In this document: positions 7,690 to 14,649 of the stretch, piece by piece
Numbering within the stretch: position 1 is the first letter of the stretch
How the letters are laid out: the number at the start of each line of letters is the position of its first letter
Source of the DNA: a virus
DNA length: 20,055 nucleotides
Reading direction: 5' to 3' (one strand)
Virus record (IMG/VR): IMGVR_UViG_3300025133_005215
Span: 1 to 20,055 of that record
Made by a program: the position numbers and the translations under genes
Notes under the pieces: generated by a model
Seen by the model: the letters and a program-made list of their open reading frames with translations, nothing else
Told to the model about the DNA's origin: nothing
The model's database searches: none

Positions 7690-9708
7690 TTACCTCGACG
7701 TGTAGGGGTTCACGCGCCCGGTGACGCCTCCGCCGGTAGCACGCCGGAGGGTACTCGACGCGCGAAGGTGATCCTTCACGAAGGCGTCGAAGATCCGGTG
7801 CGTCTGACGGTAGGACGGCCCACCGCCTCCGCCCATGCCGCCGATCTGCCGGGCGAGGCCCTCGGGCGTCTGGGATGCGACGACGAGATCGCCCTCGGAG
7901 AAGGTCGCAGTCGCGCCGCCGCCGCCGGCCTGGACGACGCCGGGCGTGTCGCTGAAGAAGTTCCCGATCGCCTCGCCGGTGCGAGAGACGAGCCCGTCGT
8001 CGCCGAAGAGCTCTCCCATGTCGAACATGTCCTTTACGCCCTGCCACAGGTCGCGGACGAAGTCGCCGATCCCGCGCTTGATCGATGCCCAGAGCTCTTT
8101 CGCGGTCGTGTCCGCGAGGGCGTTTAGCCCGTCGATCGCCTTCTCCCAAAGCGCCTTGACGAAGGCGACCGCCATCTCGGGCGCGCCGAGCACCATGCGC
8201 TTTTGCATCTCGAAGGCCAGTTTGATCACGGCGCCTATGAACTCCGGATCGGTGAGCATGTCGGCGAGCGCCGTACCGAGCTCGTCGAGGCTGTCGACCA
8301 ACGCCGGGATCACCTCCTCGACCAGGCTCACGACGAAGTCCTTCACGGCGTCAGGCGCGTCGGCGAGGCCGGTCGCGAAGGCGAGGATCTCGTCGCGGAG
8401 CCCTTCGAGGGTGCCGCGGAGGTTCGTGATCAGGTCGACGGCGGCGGCGACGAGAGCGCCCTGCGGTCCCAGCATCGACAGCACGGACGACAGGCCACCC
8501 TGGAACGTGTAGATCCCCTCGGTCACCCGATCGAAGGTGCTCGGCACATCGACTGCGACCTCCCCGAGCGCCTCGACGAGCTCCTCGACTTCCTCGGCCG
8601 ACTTCTTCGCCGCGGGCGCGACCTTCGCGACCTCCTCGGCGACCTCTTCGGCGTTCTCAGCGACCGCGGGGAGGCCGCCGCCGGAACCGCTGCCCTGGTT
8701 CGCGGCCTTCGACAGCTTCACGAAGCTGTCCATTGCGTCGGTCGCGCGCTCGGCCATCTCGTCGAGGTCGAGGATCACCGGCGACAGGGCGGCGCCGACG
8801 AACGTGAACGCCTCGCCGAACTCGCCCTTAAGCACCAGGTCGACAGCCTTCCCGAGGAACTTGATCCGTTCGAGCACGGCGTCGATCGCTGCGCTGGCGA
8901 TCTCCTTCAGGAACACGAAGCCCGCGGTGAAGTCGTTCAGGAGCTCCGCGCCGCCCACGAAGTCGGTCAAGTCGGCGAGCGCGCCGACCAGTACGGTCTT
9001 GAAGGTCGCGAGCTCCCGTTGCCAGGACGCCGCCGCCGCCGCCGCCGCTGGACCGACGCCGACGCCGAACCGGTCGGAGAGCTCGACGAAGGCGTCGAGG
9101 GCCTCCTTTTCGCCGAGGGCCTGGAGAAGCTTCGTCCCGTTCGCGCCGAAGAGCGCCGTCGCCGCCGCCGCGCGCTGGGTTGGGTCCTCGGTCGCATAGA
9201 TCGCGTCGGTGATCTTCCGGATCGCCTGCTCGCCGGTGACGTTCGCCGCCGTCATGTCCTCGGTCGAGATGCCCAGCAGGTCGAGGCCCTTCGTCGCTCT
9301 CGAGGAGCCCTTCTCGACATCCGACATGATCTTCGGGATCTGGGTCACGATCCCGGCCATGTCCGCGGCCTTCAGTCCGGAGCCCTCGAAGGCGAGGCGG
9401 AGCCCGCCGAGCGTCTCCGCGGTGATCCCGGTTCGCGTTTCGAGGTCAACGAGCTCGTTCCGAAGGTCCGCGACCTTCTGGAGCGCCTTGCCGACGCCGA
9501 CGACGAAGGCCAGTACCGCGACCTTCGCCGCCTTGAACGAGGCGGTCGCCGACTTGCCGGCGGTGAGGCTCGAGGTGCCGACCTTGTCGACCGAGCCGGA
9601 CGCCTTGCCGGCGGCGCTCTTCATGTCGTCCAGCCCGTCGACCATGGCGTCGCGGGCGCGCTCGATCCCGCGGGTGTCTTCGACGAACTCGATCGGGATC
9701 TGTGCCAT
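7690..9708 (-). CDS. Tail tape measure protein (672 aa)
   Basis: This protein sets tail length and leaves through the tail during DNA ejection. Typical features are the N-terminal block ETRTGITAETLGGLRLAFEG (about 89-108) and ATALFGANGTKLLQALGE (about 183-200). Helical, Ala/Glu-rich segments run through the middle (AEEVAEEVAKVAPAAKKSAE), and hydrophobic patches lie at about 62-75 and 412-428. Near the C-terminus TFSEGDLVVASQTPEGLAR (about 602-620) matches the conserved end motif of many tape measures. A poly-Ala run at 221-227 is encoded by a GCC repeat. It lies right after the tail assembly chaperone with its frameshift, the standard siphophage order. By the rule of roughly 0.15 nm per residue the tail would be near 100 nm (inference). 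Confidence 0.93.
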   Translation of the reverse strand: MAQIPIEFVEDTRGIERARDAMVDGLDDMKSAAGKASGSVDKVGTSSLTAGKSATASFKAAKVAVLAFVVGVGKALQKVADLRNELVDLETRTGITAETLGGLRLAFEGSGLKAADMAGIVTQIPKIMSDVEKGSSRATKGLDLLGISTEDMTAANVTGEQAIRKITDAIYATEDPTQRAAAATALFGANGTKLLQALGEKEALDAFVELSDRFGVGVGPAAAAAAASWQRELATFKTVLVGALADLTDFVGGAELLNDFTAGFVFLKEIASAAIDAVLERIKFLGKAVDLVLKGEFGEAFTFVGAALSPVILDLDEMAERATDAMDSFVKLSKAANQGSGSGGGLPAVAENAEEVAEEVAKVAPAAKKSAEEVEELVEALGEVAVDVPSTFDRVTEGIYTFQGGLSSVLSMLGPQGALVAAAVDLITNLRGTLEGLRDEILAFATGLADAPDAVKDFVVSLVEEVIPALVDSLDELGTALADMLTDPEFIGAVIKLAFEMQKRMVLGAPEMAVAFVKALWEKAIDGLNALADTTAKELWASIKRGIGDFVRDLWQGVKDMFDMGELFGDDGLVSRTGEAIGNFFSDTPGVVQAGGGGATATFSEGDLVVASQTPEGLARQIGGMGGGGGPSYRQTHRIFDAFVKDHLRASSTLRRATGGGVTGRVNPYTSR

Positions 9709-9734
9709 GGGTGGAGTTTAACCCCGTCCTGGTC

Positions 9735-10040
9735 CTACCCGAACACGTCCTCGAGCCCGGCCAGTTGCGGAGGAAGGGCCGCCTCCGAGCCCTGGGAGGC
9801 CCCAGGACCGCCCGAGGGCACTCCGGCGACGAACGATGCCACGTCGATCGCCGAGAGGCCCTGAAGGGTGATCCCTGCGCTCTCCGGTGCACGTCGCCAG
9901 AGCCACCACGCGAGCCACTCGACCCGGGCCTCGGAGGGAAGGTCGAGGAACGACGACTCTCCGCGCCCGTCGAGATGGAAGAGGCCGACCTCGAGCGCGA
10001 CCGCGGCAAGCGTCCTCAGGAGGTCTTGCGGGCTCGGCCC
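9735..10040 (-). CDS. T-part of the tail assembly chaperone, reached by -1 frameshift
   Basis: This open frame has no ATG, GTG or TTG that would start a protein of useful length, so it is easily missed. It reads on from the end of the upstream chaperone gene in the -1 frame. It encodes GPSPQDLLRTLAAVALEVGL, then a Trp-rich stretch (ARVEWLAWWLWRRA) and ends LAGLEDVFG at a TAG. In lambda-like tail phages, gene G ribosomes slip back one base in a minority of cases to make the fusion gpGT, which chaperones the tape measure. Position (before the tape measure), direction of shift and protein-like sequence all fit. The start given here (10040) assumes slippage at the second AAG AAG pair. The real slip may be some codons upstream. 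The fused product would have about 246 residues. Confidence 0.78.
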   Translation of the reverse strand, partial: GPSPQDLLRTLAAVALEVGLFHLDGRGESSFLDLPSEARVEWLAWWLWRRAPESAGITLQGLSAIDVASFVAGVPSGGPGASQGSEAALPPQLAGLEDVFG

Positions 10041-10474
10041 TTCTTGCGGCTCTTCTTCGTCGTCGCCGGTGCGCCGCTCACGGCCGACGAGAAAGACGCC
10101 TTGCGCGACGCCTGGGAGAGCTCGCCGAACAGGCCCTGGATCCCCTCCATGAAGCCGCCGACCAACCCCATGATCTGGGGGAAGGTGTAGTACGACTCGA
10201 GGAGCTCGTCGACGACGTCGGCCTCGCCGACCAGGTCGAGGTGCTCGTGATGCCAGGCACCGGCGAACACGCCGCCGACCAGGTCGAGGGTCGCCTTCAG
10301 GCCAGCGATCCCGTCGGGCGCCTCGAAGCCCTCGAGCGTATCGAGGAGCTCGATCACCTCGACGAGCGGCGGAAGGCGGAAGGCGTGCGCGTCGTGTCCG
10401 TGCGGCGCGTCCTCGACGGTGACGACGAAGACGCGACCGCCGGAGAGGTCGCGAGGGGTGGGGCGTTCGATCAT
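10016..10474 (-). CDS. Tail assembly chaperone, G-like product (152 aa)
   Basis: This is the unshifted chaperone that binds the tape measure during tail building. The ATG overlaps the TGA of the preceding gene (ATGA) and has the ribosome site GGAGGACCACC. The longer upstream frame is a shadow. The N-terminus is MIERPTPRDLSGGRVFVVTV; the middle is helical with many hydrophobic residues (FPQIMGLVGGFMEGIQGLFG). The C-terminus is very basic (TTKKSRKKGRARKTS). In the -1 frame the same bases give the acidic stretch GDDEEEPQEGPSP, followed by the T-part. No recognisable motif identifies the family; the call rests on order, length and the overlapping -1 frame, which together are characteristic. Confidence 0.82.
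   Translation of the reverse strand: MIERPTPRDLSGGRVFVVTVEDAPHGHDAHAFRLPPLVEVIELLDTLEGFEAPDGIAGLKATLDLVGGVFAGAWHHEHLDLVGEADVVDELLESYYTFPQIMGLVGGFMEGIQGLFGELSQASRKASFSSAVSGAPATTKKSRKKGRARKTS
10030..10060 (-). promoter_or_regulatory. Probable -1 programmed frameshift region
   Basis: Near the 3' end of the G-like gene, frame 0 contains two tandem lysine pairs, AAG AAG at 10057-10052 and at 10045-10040. Slippage back one base at either leads directly into the T-part. No perfect X XXY YYZ heptamer (such as GGGAAAG) is present in this stretch, so the exact slip point is not settled. The AAG AAG GGC CGA pair is my preferred candidate. Confidence 0.45.
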
Positions 10475-10956
10475 GCGGGTGGTCCTCCGCGCTTGTGGTA
10501 GGCCCGGATCCATTCGTCGACGTCGGTCGTACCGTCGGGCATGTGGTAGAGGGCGGCCTTCACGCCGTCGACAGGGACGTCGAGCCGGCGCGAGAAGGTG
10601 CCGAAGATCACCTCGGCTTGTACGTCGCCGACGACGCCGGCGACGCCCTTCCCGCGGTCGTTCCTGCGGAGCCGGGGGTCGTCGGCAATGGCGACCAGGC
10701 GCCGGGCGGAATGCACGAGGATCTTCACCTGCCAGTCGCGCCCTTTCAGGAGGAGATCGCGCCGCTTCAGGCAGTACTTGATCTCTGCCTTCTGGGGCGG
10801 CGGAGCTCGGCGGAATGGCTTCTTCTGGCGCCACAAGGGGTGTACCAGGTCGAGGCGGTGCTCGAGCTCGGCGATCTCGTGTCGGTATGGGTGGCCCGGG
10901 TGCCGCTCGTCGTCGAGGGTGAGCGGCGTCCCCCGGTGGCCCGCGGGGGAGAACAT
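10471..10956 (-). CDS. Unknown protein between tail tube and tail chaperone (161 aa)
   Basis: The ATG is preceded by GAGGTAGCGC, a good ribosome site, and lies 11 nt after the tail tube stop. The protein is basic and mainly helical: HEIAELEHRLDLVHPLWRQK near residues 26-45, then KAEIKYCLKRRDLLLKGRDW and ILVHSARRLVAIADDPRLRR. The C-terminus has VDEWIRAYHKRGGPPA. I do not recognise a family. A gene at this place, between tail tube and G/GT chaperone, is common in siphophages and is often an unnamed tail protein or a virion accessory. It is coupled to the chaperone gene by an ATGA overlap. Confidence 0.75.
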   Translation of the reverse strand: MFSPAGHRGTPLTLDDERHPGHPYRHEIAELEHRLDLVHPLWRQKKPFRRAPPPQKAEIKYCLKRRDLLLKGRDWQVKILVHSARRLVAIADDPRLRRNDRGKGVAGVVGDVQAEVIFGTFSRRLDVPVDGVKAALYHMPDGTTDVDEWIRAYHKRGGPPA

Positions 10957-10967
10957 GCGCTACCTCG

Positions 10968-11474
10968 TCAGGAGATGACCGGCGCGACCGCGTAGCTTGT
11001 GCCGGTGGTCGGGATCGTGAGCGGCGAGCCGTCGCCCATGCCGCCGCGGAGCGCGGAGAAGGGCAGCGCGATCGTCTTGTCGCTCTCGCCGAAGGCGTCG
11101 CCGTCGATCACGACGTTCGTGGTGAACGTGTACGTGTCCGTGTTCGCGCCGAGGGTGCTCGCCCAATTGTCCAGGGTGTAGCCGCCGGCGTACATGAAGA
11201 GGATGTCAGGGAGGGTCTGGTACGTCTCGGGCTCGGCGGTGTCGCCGAGGTCGCGGAGGTTCGTCGTCCACCCGTAGGTCATGGGCTGATCGTCGACGTT
11301 CCGGACGTCCGGCGTCGCGCCGAACGCGCCGCGGTCGAGGTACGCCTCGACGGACACGCCCGGGACGGTAAGCGAGAAGTCACCGGGCTCCTTCGAGATC
11401 GTGTACGTCTCGGAACCGTCGGTGATGCTGAGGACGACGTCGCGCTTGTTGCGGACGGTGCCGGATTCGGCCAT
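10968..11474 (-). CDS. Major tail (tube) protein (168 aa)
   Basis: The protein likely stacks in rings to form the tail tube. The start at 11474 has a strong Shine-Dalgarno, TAGGAG, 6 nt upstream. The frame extends further but that part is an Arg/Pro-rich shadow of the neighbouring gene. The sequence is beta-rich and Gly/Thr-rich as tail tubes are: RDVVLSITDGSETYTISKEP near the start, then PMTYGWTTNLRDL and a conserved-looking middle DTYTFTTNVVIDGDAFGESD (about 116-135). The end is GGMGDGSPLTIPTTGTSYAV. Position after the tail completion genes and before the chaperone and tape measure supports the call. It is based on fold type and order rather than a signature motif. Confidence 0.82.
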   Translation of the reverse strand: MAESGTVRNKRDVVLSITDGSETYTISKEPGDFSLTVPGVSVEAYLDRGAFGATPDVRNVDDQPMTYGWTTNLRDLGDTAEPETYQTLPDILFMYAGGYTLDNWASTLGANTDTYTFTTNVVIDGDAFGESDKTIALPFSALRGGMGDGSPLTIPTTGTSYAVAPVIS

Positions 11475-11482
11475 GAGAGCTC

Positions 11483-11827
11483 CTAGAGGTTGCGCTCTAC
11501 CACGGTGGGCAGGATCTCGGTGAGGCGGGTGTCGGTGTCTGCGAGGATCGGGTCGACGACCTGGTCCGCGGCGAGCTCTCCCGAGCCGGCGATCGTCACG
11601 TCGGAAGCATAGCCGACCCGGTTGTCGATCTGGGTCGTGGAACCGTCGGAGACGACCTCCCACCCGTCCGCGCTCGTTCCGGTCTTCCTCGGCCACGCGG
11701 CGCGGATCTCCGCGACGGCGACCCGGGCCTCTTCGTCGACGACGAACCGCGTCTCGTCGATCACGCGGCGCGCGCCAGCGTCGAAGGCGGCGAGCACCTC
11801 GGCGGCGTCGACCTGAATGTCGATCAC
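11483..11827 (-). CDS. HK97 gp10-like neck/tail completion protein (114 aa)
   Basis: The start is a GTG overlapping the stop of the upstream gene (GTGA). The longer frame upstream is a shadow. The protein begins VIDIQVDAAEVLAAFDAGAR, a helix followed by EEARVAVAEIRAAWPRKTGT and SADGWEVVSDG. The pattern of an N-terminal helix, then P-x-K-T-G-x-S and a beta strand is typical of HK97 gp10-like proteins (the TG-R/S turn after a Pro), which join head and tail. The remainder is acidic and ends LPTVVERNL. It lies between the tail terminator and the tail tube genes. In many phages the gp10-like gene comes before the terminator, so the order here is slightly different or the two calls may be swapped. 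Confidence 0.75.
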   Translation of the reverse strand: MIDIQVDAAEVLAAFDAGARRVIDETRFVVDEEARVAVAEIRAAWPRKTGTSADGWEVVSDGSTTQIDNRVGYASDVTIAGSGELAADQVVDPILADTDTRLTEILPTVVERNL

Positions 11828-12276
11828 AGGTACGACCCGATCGTGAAGTCGTGCGACACCTTGAAGAGCAGATCGGCGGCGATGCGCTCGCCGTGCGTGT
11901 CGGTGCCGTAGAGCGCCTTGACGAAGGTCACGTCGTAGTCTGCGACGTCGTCGCCCTTGTCGAGGAGCGCGTCGACGAGCTTCAGCGCGTAGGTGTCGAC
12001 GAAGCCCTCCCACGACGACACCGCGTCGTGGATGTTGAACCGGTACAGGATCGACGCGCGCACCTGGTGCTCGAGCCGCATCTCGTCCGAGCCGCGGTAG
12101 TTCACGTTCCTGCTCTCGTCGATCGCGAGCGCGTAGACGTTACCGGCGTTCGCGAGGGTGTCGGGCACCTTGCGCGCGCTGAAGAGCACCGGCGCCGCCG
12201 TGAAGCCCTCCGCGGTGATCGCCGTCGCCAGGTTCCCGAGGACCGTGCCGAGGCTGTCGTTCGGCGCGCTTGCCAT
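11824..12276 (-). CDS. Tail terminator-like protein (150 aa)
   Basis: This probably caps the growing tail tube and joins it to the head, as lambda gpU does. The N-terminal helix (GTVLGNLATAITAEG) is followed by a beta strand region and the block HQVRASILYRFNIHDAVSSW, then a helix EGFVDTYALKLVDALLDKGD. The alternation of a beta strand and a helix of this size is typical for the terminator family. The ATG lies one base after the upstream stop; the ribosome site is weak. It overlaps the next gene by 4 bases. No signature residue clinches the call, so it relies on secondary structure pattern and order. Confidence 0.68.
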   Translation of the reverse strand: MASAPNDSLGTVLGNLATAITAEGFTAAPVLFSARKVPDTLANAGNVYALAIDESRNVNYRGSDEMRLEHQVRASILYRFNIHDAVSSWEGFVDTYALKLVDALLDKGDDVADYDVTFVKALYGTDTHGERIAADLLFKVSHDFTIGSYL

Positions 12277-12277
12277 G

Positions 12278-13021
12278 TCAGATCCAGCGCGAGCGGTTCG
12301 AGTCGGAGCTCGTCAGGAACAGGACACCGACGCCGGGTTCGCCGCGGTCGGCGTCGGCCTGCTTCCCGCTCTCGACCAGGTCGAGATCAAGACGGAGCGC
12401 GGCGAAGTCGGCCTCGTGCTCCTCTTCGTAATGCTCGGCCTGGGAGATGTACGACCCGCCGCCGCGGGCGTTCGTGGCCATGCCCCGGAAACCCATCGCG
12501 AGCGCCTTCGAGACGTGCGCGTCGACGACCTGGGAGGCGTCGAGCACCAGATCGGGCCGGAGCCCTTCGCGGATCAGGCGCCGGACGACCGTCTCGAACG
12601 CCTTGTCCCGTACTTCGGCCCAATCGGACCAGGCCGCGGGCTTGAGGTTCGTGATCCCAGGGTGGCGCGCTTCGAGGTCGGAGTCGTCGATCGCCGGGCG
12701 GAGGGAGAAGCGGACGAGCCAACAGGGACGGCGCACGACGTGGGTGTCGCCGTCGACGGTGAGCGTCCATCGCTCCTCGTACGCCTGGGAGAAGTCCAGG
12801 GTCGCCGGGACGTCGCCCGCGACCAGGGCCACGGTCGCGGTGTAGGGACCAGAGCCGGCGACGGTCGCCGCGCGGTCGTCGACGATCGCCGTCTGCTCGT
12901 GGTCGAGGAGGTCGTAGGTCGCAGCGGTGAGCGTCCCACCGCCCACACGGAGCACCGTGTCGACGGCGCGCGCGCGCTCGACGAAGACAGGGTGCGGGGT
13001 GCGGACGGTGAGCGTCGCCAT
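12278..13021 (-). CDS. Probable head-tail adaptor/connector protein (247 aa)
   Basis: The gene lies 3 nt after the stop of the fiber-like gene. The N-terminal part (residues about 1-110) is beta-rich with repeated Thr/Val strands, for example TATVALVAGDVPATLDFSQA. The C-terminal half is helical: SDWAEVRDKAFETVVRRLIR, VLDASQVVDAHVSKALAMGF and HYEEEHEADFAALRLDLDLV. The helical part resembles head-tail adaptor proteins (HK97 gp6 type) that bind the portal. The position between head and tail completion genes supports this. Fusion of a beta domain to such an adaptor is a less usual layout, and no precise family could be named. Confidence 0.66.
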   Translation of the reverse strand: MATLTVRTPHPVFVERARAVDTVLRVGGGTLTAATYDLLDHEQTAIVDDRAATVAGSGPYTATVALVAGDVPATLDFSQAYEERWTLTVDGDTHVVRRPCWLVRFSLRPAIDDSDLEARHPGITNLKPAAWSDWAEVRDKAFETVVRRLIREGLRPDLVLDASQVVDAHVSKALAMGFRGMATNARGGGSYISQAEHYEEEHEADFAALRLDLDLVESGKQADADRGEPGVGVLFLTSSDSNRSRWI

Positions 13022-13024
13022 GGT

Positions 13025-13660
13025 CTACGCCGCCGGGTCGATGCTGCGGATCCGGTAGATGACTTCGTACTTCACCGGCGAGTCGCCGGCGGCGGAGAAC
13101 CAGTCGTTGGATGCGTGCGCGACGATCGCGGCGTTCGCGACTGGGACACAGTCGATCCCGTGGGTGACGGCATGGGTGTCCGCGGTCTGGTCCATGAAGC
13201 CCGTTTCAGCGACCTGACCGACGACCTCGTCTCCGGAGCCGTTCGTGTACTTCGCCATGAGGTTTCCGGTCTTCGTGCCGTCGTAGGCGGCGGTCGCGTA
13301 GTCCAGGAACCAGTGAATGCTCTGCACCTCGACGTACTTCCCAGCGCCGGGCGCCGCGACGATCGTCTGGGGGGCACTGTTCAGGTTCCCGGCGGTCGCG
13401 CCGGCTGCGATGGTGCCGGAGGCGGCGAACACGCCGTCGAGGGCGAGCCACGTCCCGCCGCCCGCGGTCGCATAGAGGCCGGTGTTCTGGTCGCCGTCGG
13501 TGCGGAGGTAGAGGGAGCCGCCCGGGTCGGTCGCCGAGGGCGCGCCGGCGCCGCTGGAGATCATGGGGACAAGGCTGTCGTCCTGCCCCTTCGCGGAGCG
13601 GACGCCAAAACCGACGGCGGCGGTCGCCTTCAAGAGGCGCTGTACGAACTTGGAAGCCAT
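13025..13660 (-). CDS. Head fiber or decoration-like protein (211 aa)
   Basis: The ATG has GGAG 7 nt upstream. Near residues 30-75 the protein reads LVPMISSGAGAPSATDPGGS, then LYLRTDGDQNTGLYAT and GGGTWLALDG. This G-x-P-S...GSLYLRTDG...W pattern is seen in short trimeric fiber and head-fiber proteins. The C-terminal 110 residues are beta-rich and carry an aromatic core (VQSIHWFLDY, YEVIYRIRSIDPAA). An N-terminal basic helix (SKFVQRLLKATAAVGFGVR) could bind the capsid. A location among head genes favours a capsid decoration or head fiber over a tail fiber. This is inference from motif and context. Confidence 0.65.
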   Translation of the reverse strand: MASKFVQRLLKATAAVGFGVRSAKGQDDSLVPMISSGAGAPSATDPGGSLYLRTDGDQNTGLYATAGGGTWLALDGVFAASGTIAAGATAGNLNSAPQTIVAAPGAGKYVEVQSIHWFLDYATAAYDGTKTGNLMAKYTNGSGDEVVGQVAETGFMDQTADTHAVTHGIDCVPVANAAIVAHASNDWFSAAGDSPVKYEVIYRIRSIDPAA

Positions 13661-13672
13661 GGAGGATCTCCA

Positions 13673-13688
13673 TACGCCCGCGGGCGTA
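13673..13688. repeat. 16-nt perfect palindrome TACGCCCGCGGGCGTA
   Basis: The palindrome lies in the 40-nt gap between the 64-aa gene and the fiber-like gene, 13 nt before the latter's ATG. It has no loop, so as RNA it would need a small loop opened in the middle. The inner 14 bases also occur at 4785-4798 inside the large tail gene. It may be a chance product of high GC or a protein binding site. Confidence 0.4.
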
Positions 13689-13700
13689 GCTTGGGGGTGT

Positions 13701-13895
13701 TCAGGGGTCGCGCTTCAGGGGAGGCGGGAGCCGGCCCGTCCGCACGCCTCGATCATAGCGCTTTCGCGCCCGGGCGATCTTCTTCTCGACCCAGGCGTCG
13801 TAGCCGGCGCGCTTCTCTCGTGGCACGTCTTCGCGCCGTGCTTGCTCTCTGAGCTTCTCCGAGGTGTCTCGGACGCCTGGGAGCTCACCCGGCAT
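13701..13895 (-). CDS. 64-aa basic protein of unknown function
   Basis: The protein reads MPGELPGVRDTSEKLREQAR, then EDVPREKRAGYDAWVEKKIA and RARKRYDRGVRTGRLPPP. It is strongly basic and helical and has no membrane segment. Its ATG overlaps the end of the upstream 254-aa gene by 11 bases, as expected in a compact operon. Its position among head genes suggests a small virion or assembly protein, but nothing specific can be said. A basic, helical small protein could also bind nucleic acid. Confidence 0.66.
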   Translation of the reverse strand: MPGELPGVRDTSEKLREQARREDVPREKRAGYDAWVEKKIARARKRYDRGVRTGRLPPPLKRDP

Positions 13896-14649
13896 CGACG
13901 GCGGCCTCCACGCGCTTCCTGGCGCGCTTGCGGGTGGGCCGCGGGCTCTCGACCGGGACGGGCTCGAGGTCCACCGGCGCCGCCGGGCTCTCGCCGGCGT
14001 CGAGTTCGACGGGCGCGCCGTGCTTCGCGCGCACCGCTTCGAGGCTCTTCTCTGTCTTCGCGGCGCGCCGCGCCGCCGCCGGGTTGTGGTCGGCCTTCTG
14101 TTCGTTCCTGTTCAGGCGCTGGCCGAACTTCGCCTCGACCGCGGCGAGCACCTCGGGCGACACGTCGCCGAGGAGGTCGACGACGCGTTCGAGGAAGCGG
14201 AAGTAGCCGTCGCCGTCGCGCTTCATGTAGACCTGATTCCCGACCGTGACCGGCCTCGACCAGGCGTCATAGTGAGCCGCGCCGCGGCGGCCGTTGTACT
14301 TCCGACAGAAGCACGGGAGCACCTCGCCGAACGCCTCAACCTCGCCGATGTGCTCCCAGCGGATCACGATCCAGCCGCGGCGCTCCTTCGCTGCGATCGC
14401 CTGGTGTGGCGACCCTTGCGCGGAGACGCCGTCGACGCCGGGCGCGAACCGGAGCGGACGAAGGAGGGGCAGAAGGCGCCGCGTCCCGTCGCTGTGCTCG
14501 AAGACGTCCCAAGACGTCGGATGCACCATGAAGTAGAACGCGGGCGAGGGGAGCAGGTTCGGAAGGTTCGTTGCCGCCGCCGGCATGTCCGGAGACTCGC
14601 CGGCGCTCGCCGCGTGCGTGATCAGGTTGCGCGATCCGAGGTGCTTCAT
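13885..14649 (-). CDS. Unknown protein next to the capsid gene (254 aa)
   Basis: The ATG carries the ribosome site TAGGACCACACC, a motif shared with other genes of this phage. The N-terminal half includes PAFYFMVHPTSWDVFEHSDG and FAPGVDGVSAQGSP, then RGWIVIRWEHIGEV; it looks like a compact alpha/beta domain. A pair of Cys (113 and 115, in LPCFCRK) is present. Residues about 195-254 are low complexity, rich in Ala, Pro and Lys/Arg, ending in PTRKRARKR; this tail may bind nucleic acid. It follows the capsid gene after an 87-nt structured gap. I do not recognise the family. Confidence 0.75.
   Translation of the reverse strand: MKHLGSRNLITHAASAGESPDMPAAATNLPNLLPSPAFYFMVHPTSWDVFEHSDGTRRLLPLLRPLRFAPGVDGVSAQGSPHQAIAAKERRGWIVIRWEHIGEVEAFGEVLPCFCRKYNGRRGAAHYDAWSRPVTVGNQVYMKRDGDGYFRFLERVVDLLGDVSPEVLAAVEAKFGQRLNRNEQKADHNPAAARRAAKTEKSLEAVRAKHGAPVELDAGESPAAPVDLEPVPVESPRPTRKRARKRVEAAVDAG

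What the first reader, a model, noticed from the sequence alone, without database searches (positions are those of the whole stretch)
9735..10060. Hidden -1 frame extension of the tail assembly chaperone
Between the chaperone stop (10016) and the tape measure start lies a protein-like frame with no usable start codon. It is aligned -1 to the chaperone, exactly as lambda G/GT requires. Its Trp-rich block ARVEWLAWWLWRRA and the acidic GDDEEEP segment in the overlap look selected. No classic heptamer is present; two AAG AAG pairs are the best slip candidates, so the signal may be a less usual one.
Basis: partly seen in the sequence, partly recalled or inferred. Interest (0 to 1): 0.7.

Follow-up and report, generated by a model that had tools for sequence, protein, structure and literature searches.

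The report
Frameshifted tail chaperone of uncultured phage
The hidden reading frame is real: as in phage lambda, some ribosomes very probably slip back one base near the end of the tail-chaperone gene to make a longer version, a known trick found here in a divergent phage from a large group of uncultured viruses, with an unusual and still unproven slip site.

Summary
On the minus strand the chaperone (10016-10474) is followed by a frame open to 9735, exactly -1 to it, with no ATG/GTG/TTG before its conserved core. Codon statistics switch to that frame within the chaperone's last codons. About 270 related loci were fetched from uncultured viruses. In 97 distinct ones the same domain lies -1 to the chaperone, behind a slip site (AAATTTT, GGGTTTT, GGATTTT, GGGAAAT, GGGTTTC, GGATTTC). 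In 32 of these a -1 stop lies within ten codons upstream, so the shift cannot lie further up. A profile of the relatives' extensions, built without the window, ranks the window's -1 frame first among its 323 six-frame ORFs. So this is a lambda G/GT-type -1 frameshifted chaperone, in a group whose chaperones match no Pfam or PHROG family convincingly. The best candidate is G TCT TTC (10097-10091): it aligns with the family's slip column and re-pairs UUC to UUU, but its P-site pairing is poor and it lacks the family's upstream Shine-Dalgarno-like element. The exact site in the window is likely, not settled. No experiment has been done.

The parts
10016..10474 (-). Tail assembly chaperone, zero frame, 152 aa
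   Evidence: ORF, position before the tape measure, alignment with the chaperones of 28 relatives; profile similarity alone is weak
9735..10094 (-). -1 frame extension from the proposed slip codon to its stop, 119 aa; fusion of 246 aa
   Evidence: Codon statistics; homology to relatives' extensions
9882..10007 (-). Conserved core of the extension domain (two predicted helices)
   Evidence: HMM alignment to residues 41-82 of P0002; AlphaFold model, pLDDT about 82-92 in the core
10091..10097 (-). Best slip-site candidate, G TCT TTC (zero-frame codons TCT TTC)
   Evidence: Aligns with the family's slip column; T_TTY occurs only 6 times in 5248 codons; A-site UUC to UUU as in the TTC relatives
10037..10043 (-). 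Rival slip-site candidate, G AAG GGC
   Evidence: Re-pairing and geometry only; no relative uses it
7690..9708 (-). Tape measure protein
   Evidence: PHROG 8462 tape measure, E 1.8e-13
10968..11477 (-). Tail tube protein (major tail protein)
   Evidence: Homologous to and syntenic with the protein upstream of the chaperone in relatives; function inferred from position

Best explanation
The window carries a lambda G/GT-type programmed -1 ribosomal frameshift in its tail assembly chaperone gene. Most ribosomes make the 152-aa chaperone. A few slip back one base near its end and make a 246-aa fusion whose added C-terminal domain is the frame ending at 9735. The slip most likely happens at U_UUC in G TCT TTC (10097-10091), where tRNA-Phe re-pairs from UUC to UUU. 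By analogy with lambda, the chaperone part would bind the tape measure and the added domain would recruit the tail tube protein. Shown here: the frame is coding, is homologous to the relatives' extensions, and those lie -1 to the chaperone at conserved slip sites. Inferred: the slip in the window itself, its exact site, its efficiency and the function.
For: Exact -1 frame, no start codon before the core. Coding switch at 10100-10050. Extension profile built without the window finds it first of 323 ORFs, E 0.0014, and above all 5000 shuffles. 97 distinct relatives have the extension in the -1 frame with the chaperone frame open at least 90 codons; 67 of 97 heptamer cases are canonical or near-canonical XXXYYYZ of the AAATTTT, GGGTTTT or related kinds, and 32 have a -1 stop within ten codons upstream. 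Slip column aligns with the window's TTC. Lambda mechanism: PMC5009743.
Against: No expression data. The window's own site is not a canonical heptamer: the P-site TCT re-pairs poorly to GTC. The Shine-Dalgarno-like element seen in most relatives is absent in the window, and its downstream structure is not above dinucleotide shuffles. The window's chaperone matches the relatives' chaperone profile only weakly, and a broader extension profile no longer lists the window at E 0.001.
Confidence: 0.9

Rival explanations
1. The shift is real but happens further downstream, at G AAG GGC (10043-10037) or at one of the AAG AAG pairs (10057-10052, 10045-10040).
For: G AAG GGC re-pairs better at the P-site than G TCT TTC, and leaves a 7-aa zero-frame tail and a short linker to the core, as in most relatives.
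Against: All 97 relatives have TTT, TTC or AAT in the A-site, none GGC or AAG. The 17 codons between the two sites already look -1 coding, 0.6% of control pieces as high. Long zero-frame tails also occur in relatives: 28-29 aa in three and 45 aa in L198.
Confidence: 0.3
2. The extension is a separate protein started at the near-cognate CTG at 10019, which overlaps the chaperone's stop, by coupled reinitiation.
For: CTG overlaps TGA (CTGA), and a weak Shine-Dalgarno-like stretch lies about 20 nt upstream.
Against: CTG starts are rare and the spacing is wrong. In 59 of 97 relatives no ATG/GTG/TTG exists from the upstream -1 stop to the core, while slip heptamers are conserved.
Confidence: 0.04
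3. The frame is an accidental open frame in G+C-rich DNA, not a gene.
For: Many frames are open for long stretches in this window, and the codon score of 0.55 bits per codon is modest.
Against: Match to the family profile in the expected frame and place; codon signal switches frame near the chaperone's end.
Confidence: 0.03

Closest known systems
Phage lambda G/GT tail assembly chaperone (-1 frameshift)
   Same: Position before the tape measure gene, -1 direction, short chaperone plus longer fusion, added domain without a start of its own
   Different: No sequence match was found to known chaperone families; the window's slip site is not a canonical XXXYYYZ heptamer
Frameshifted chaperones of the about 97 uncultured relatives found here
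   Same: Gene neighbourhood, homologous extension, -1 frame, Phe codon at the slip column
   Different: Relatives mostly have GGGTTTT, AAATTTT, GGATTTT or GGGAAAT and an upstream Shine-Dalgarno-like element; the window has GTCTTTC and lacks the element. The window also has an extra ORF between tail tube and chaperone
YqbN (PDB 3klu), a Bacillus prophage protein
   Same: Highest TM-scores in the PDB list for the window's chaperone model, 0.40/0.49 over 108 columns; from memory it belongs to a phage tail chaperone family
   Different: Foldseek E 5.1, probability 0.12, so a hint only

Membership tests
Lambda-type -1 frameshifted tail assembly chaperone (G/GT) | Two overlapping frames directly upstream of the tape measure gene, the second -1 to the first | tested here: met
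   tape measure by PHROG 8462
Lambda-type -1 frameshifted tail assembly chaperone (G/GT) | Second frame codes for protein and has no start of its own | tested here: met
   Codon statistics and family profile; no ATG/GTG/TTG before the core
Lambda-type -1 frameshifted tail assembly chaperone (G/GT) | Slippery site conserved in relatives | tested here: met
   97 relatives; located through a conserved -1 residue, so partly protein-level conservation
Lambda-type -1 frameshifted tail assembly chaperone (G/GT) | Canonical slippery heptamer in the window itself | tested here: not met
   No canonical XXXYYYZ in the window's chaperone zero frame; best candidate G TCT TTC. Not a strict requirement: unusual motifs are on record (PMC10885494)
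Lambda-type -1 frameshifted tail assembly chaperone (G/GT) | Fusion protein made at a low, fixed ratio and needed for tail assembly | not testable with these tools
   Needs expression and phage experiments
Known Pfam or PHROG tail chaperone families | Significant profile match of the chaperone or the extension | tested here: not met
   Window proteins: none with support. Eight relatives' proteins: no Pfam match above cut-off; one weak PHROG match labelled major head protein, E 0.0008

The most novel reading that the evidence does not exclude
The window has drifted from its family's canonical heptamer and Shine-Dalgarno-like stimulator and shifts frame by a minimal signal, single-tRNA slippage on U_UUC with an imperfect P-site, so that a programmed frameshift persists after loss of its usual signal.
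Probability: 0.35. Interest if true: 0.45.

Novelty: new member of a known kind. Interest (0 to 1): 0.3.

Why it matters
It shows that about 120 residues of an assembly protein, which a gene finder would miss, are coded in this phage and in a large uncultured group whose chaperones match no Pfam or PHROG family with support. The 97 relatives give a comparative set of slip sites with an apparent Shine-Dalgarno-like stimulator, in which the window is an informative outlier for asking how little signal a programmed frameshift needs.

Tried and rejected
Single-protein scans for the chaperone, tape measure and capsid found only the near-identical record, and the terminase scan found none. tblastn in INPHARED found nothing for chaperone, capsid and terminase and only weak matches for the tape measure. 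I began a wider terminase search by printing four randomly mutated copies of a terminase fragment as decoy rows, stopped before using them, and used an IUPAC pattern instead. A direct pairwise match of the window's extension to L198's was not above shuffles. Downstream RNA structure in the window was not above dinucleotide shuffles. A pattern for the Trp-rich block found only the near-identical record and an unrelated contig. Structure comparisons gave no confident match. One genome scan found no relative of a chaperone; a capsid-profile scan found one contig binned as Chloroflexi. A +1 or -2 reading was rejected because that frame is not coding-like. I did not count the NNT P-site codon in relatives as independent evidence, because the -1 Phe codon forces that T.

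Full report
Observation. On the minus strand the window reads tail tube (10968-11477), an extra ORF (10471-10956), chaperone (10016-10474) and tape measure (7690-9708). The frame that ends at 9735 is open to 10559 and is exactly -1 to the chaperone. It has no ATG, GTG or TTG before the core domain; CTG at 10019 is the only near-cognate start in reach.

Is it coding? With codon tables from the phage's own genes, 9735-10015 scores +50.7 bits in the -1 frame and -64.5 and -91.0 in the other two minus frames. In sliding windows the chaperone frame fades and the -1 frame rises at about 10100-10050. Against the -1 frame of the phage's other genes, the 24 codons from the proposed site score +2.1 against -33.5 +- 10.4, 0 of 787 as high. 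A second record, identical from 6019 to 14474 and differing at 16 places elsewhere in 14,016 aligned bases, has the same frame.

Relatives. Single-protein searches found only that record. An IUPAC pattern for two terminase motifs, a capsid profile and a tape measure profile brought in about 270 loci of uncultured viruses; capsid identity to the window is up to 49%. Many share the order tail tube, chaperone, extension, a further gene, tape measure. Relatives' extensions read like GFYRxxxGGLDAVALEIGL...FYxWxxExQERVLGWWR, and the window's LAAVALEVGL...FLDLPSEARVEWLAWWLWRRAP matches them. An HMM from 66 loci, without the window, scores the window's frame 15.6 bits (E 9e-7 for one sequence). Among the window's 323 six-frame ORFs the -1 frame is first (13.4 bits, E 0.0014; next 7.9 bits); the real core scores 16.4 bits and the best of 5000 shuffles 8.8. 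A broader HMM from the enlarged set no longer lists the window at E 0.001, so the homology is clear in context but distant.

Slip sites. In all 97 distinct relatives the extension is -1 to a chaperone frame open for at least 90 codons. The heptamers are AAATTTT 29, GGGTTTT 27, GGATTTT 16, GGGAAAT 8, GGGTTTC 6, GGATTTC 4 and seven singletons. Two cautions: the sites were located through a conserved residue in the -1 frame (Phe in most), so part of the conservation is protein-level; and the 97 are related (33 clusters at 60% identity). The -1 Phe codon is TTT in all 89 Phe cases, although TTC makes up 79 of 98 Phe codons in the rest of the chaperone genes of G+C-rich relatives. In 32 of 97 a -1 stop lies within ten codons upstream, and 59 have no ATG/GTG/TTG from that stop to the core. 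A Shine-Dalgarno-like stretch sits about 12-21 nt upstream of the heptamer in most relatives, as in dnaX-type frameshifting (from memory). L198, the relative with the closest tape measure (43%), has G GGA AAC, a 45-aa zero-frame tail and a G+C phase switch there.

The window's own site. Its chaperone has no canonical heptamer in the zero frame. T_TTY occurs six times in 5248 codons of its genes, once in the chaperone: TCT TTC at 10096-10091, 26 codons before the end. An automatic alignment with 28 relatives puts this Phe in the family's slip column, and hhalign aligns the same residues, though weakly (E 0.019). tRNA-Phe on UUC re-pairs fully to UUU; the P-site TCT to GTC does not, so a single-tRNA slip is the likelier version (inference). 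The rival G AAG GGC (10043-10037) gives more family-like geometry, but no relative uses such an A-site, and the 17 codons between the two sites already look -1 coding, 0.6% of control pieces as high. That test cannot fully exclude a loosely constrained tail. I put about 0.6 on TCT TTC, 0.3 on a downstream AAG site and 0.1 on another site.

Structure. AlphaFold gives the extension core two helices with pLDDT about 82-92 and the chaperone a beta hairpin followed by helices (mean pLDDT 72). No confident structural match was found; YqbN (3klu) had the highest TM-scores in the PDB list, with E 5.1.

Known or new. Frameshifted tail chaperones are textbook (PMC5009743), and unusual slip motifs are on record in phage chaperones (PMC10885494). 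This is a new member of that kind, in a group whose chaperones match no Pfam or PHROG family with support, and with a slip site in the window that departs from its relatives. Nothing here measures expression.

Noticed in passing
window 10471-10956 (-): A coding-like 161-aa ORF lies between tail tube and chaperone; in the relatives read, the chaperone follows the tail tube directly. It has no supported Pfam or PHROG match.
   Followed up: partly
window 4350-7685 (-): The 1111-aa tail protein downstream of the tape measure holds Asp-box-like repeats (such as SSDGGATFDL), as do relatives' counterparts (STDQGSTWTL), suggestive of a sialidase-type propeller; by eye only.
   Followed up: no
window 3026-3146: Fifteen of the 16 differences between the window and its near-identical record cluster in 121 bases inside the ORF 2702-4348, a possible recombination or variable patch.
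   Followed up: no
L200, L202, L204, L208: Phages with related tape measures but unrelated chaperone genes show overlapping frames in another register (+1 or -2 by frame number), perhaps another type of frameshift.
   Followed up: no
L277: A 4-kb contig binned as Chloroflexi carries this virus group's capsid, neck and chaperone region with a GGGTTTT site; a possible host hint, but bins of viral contigs are unreliable.
   Followed up: partly
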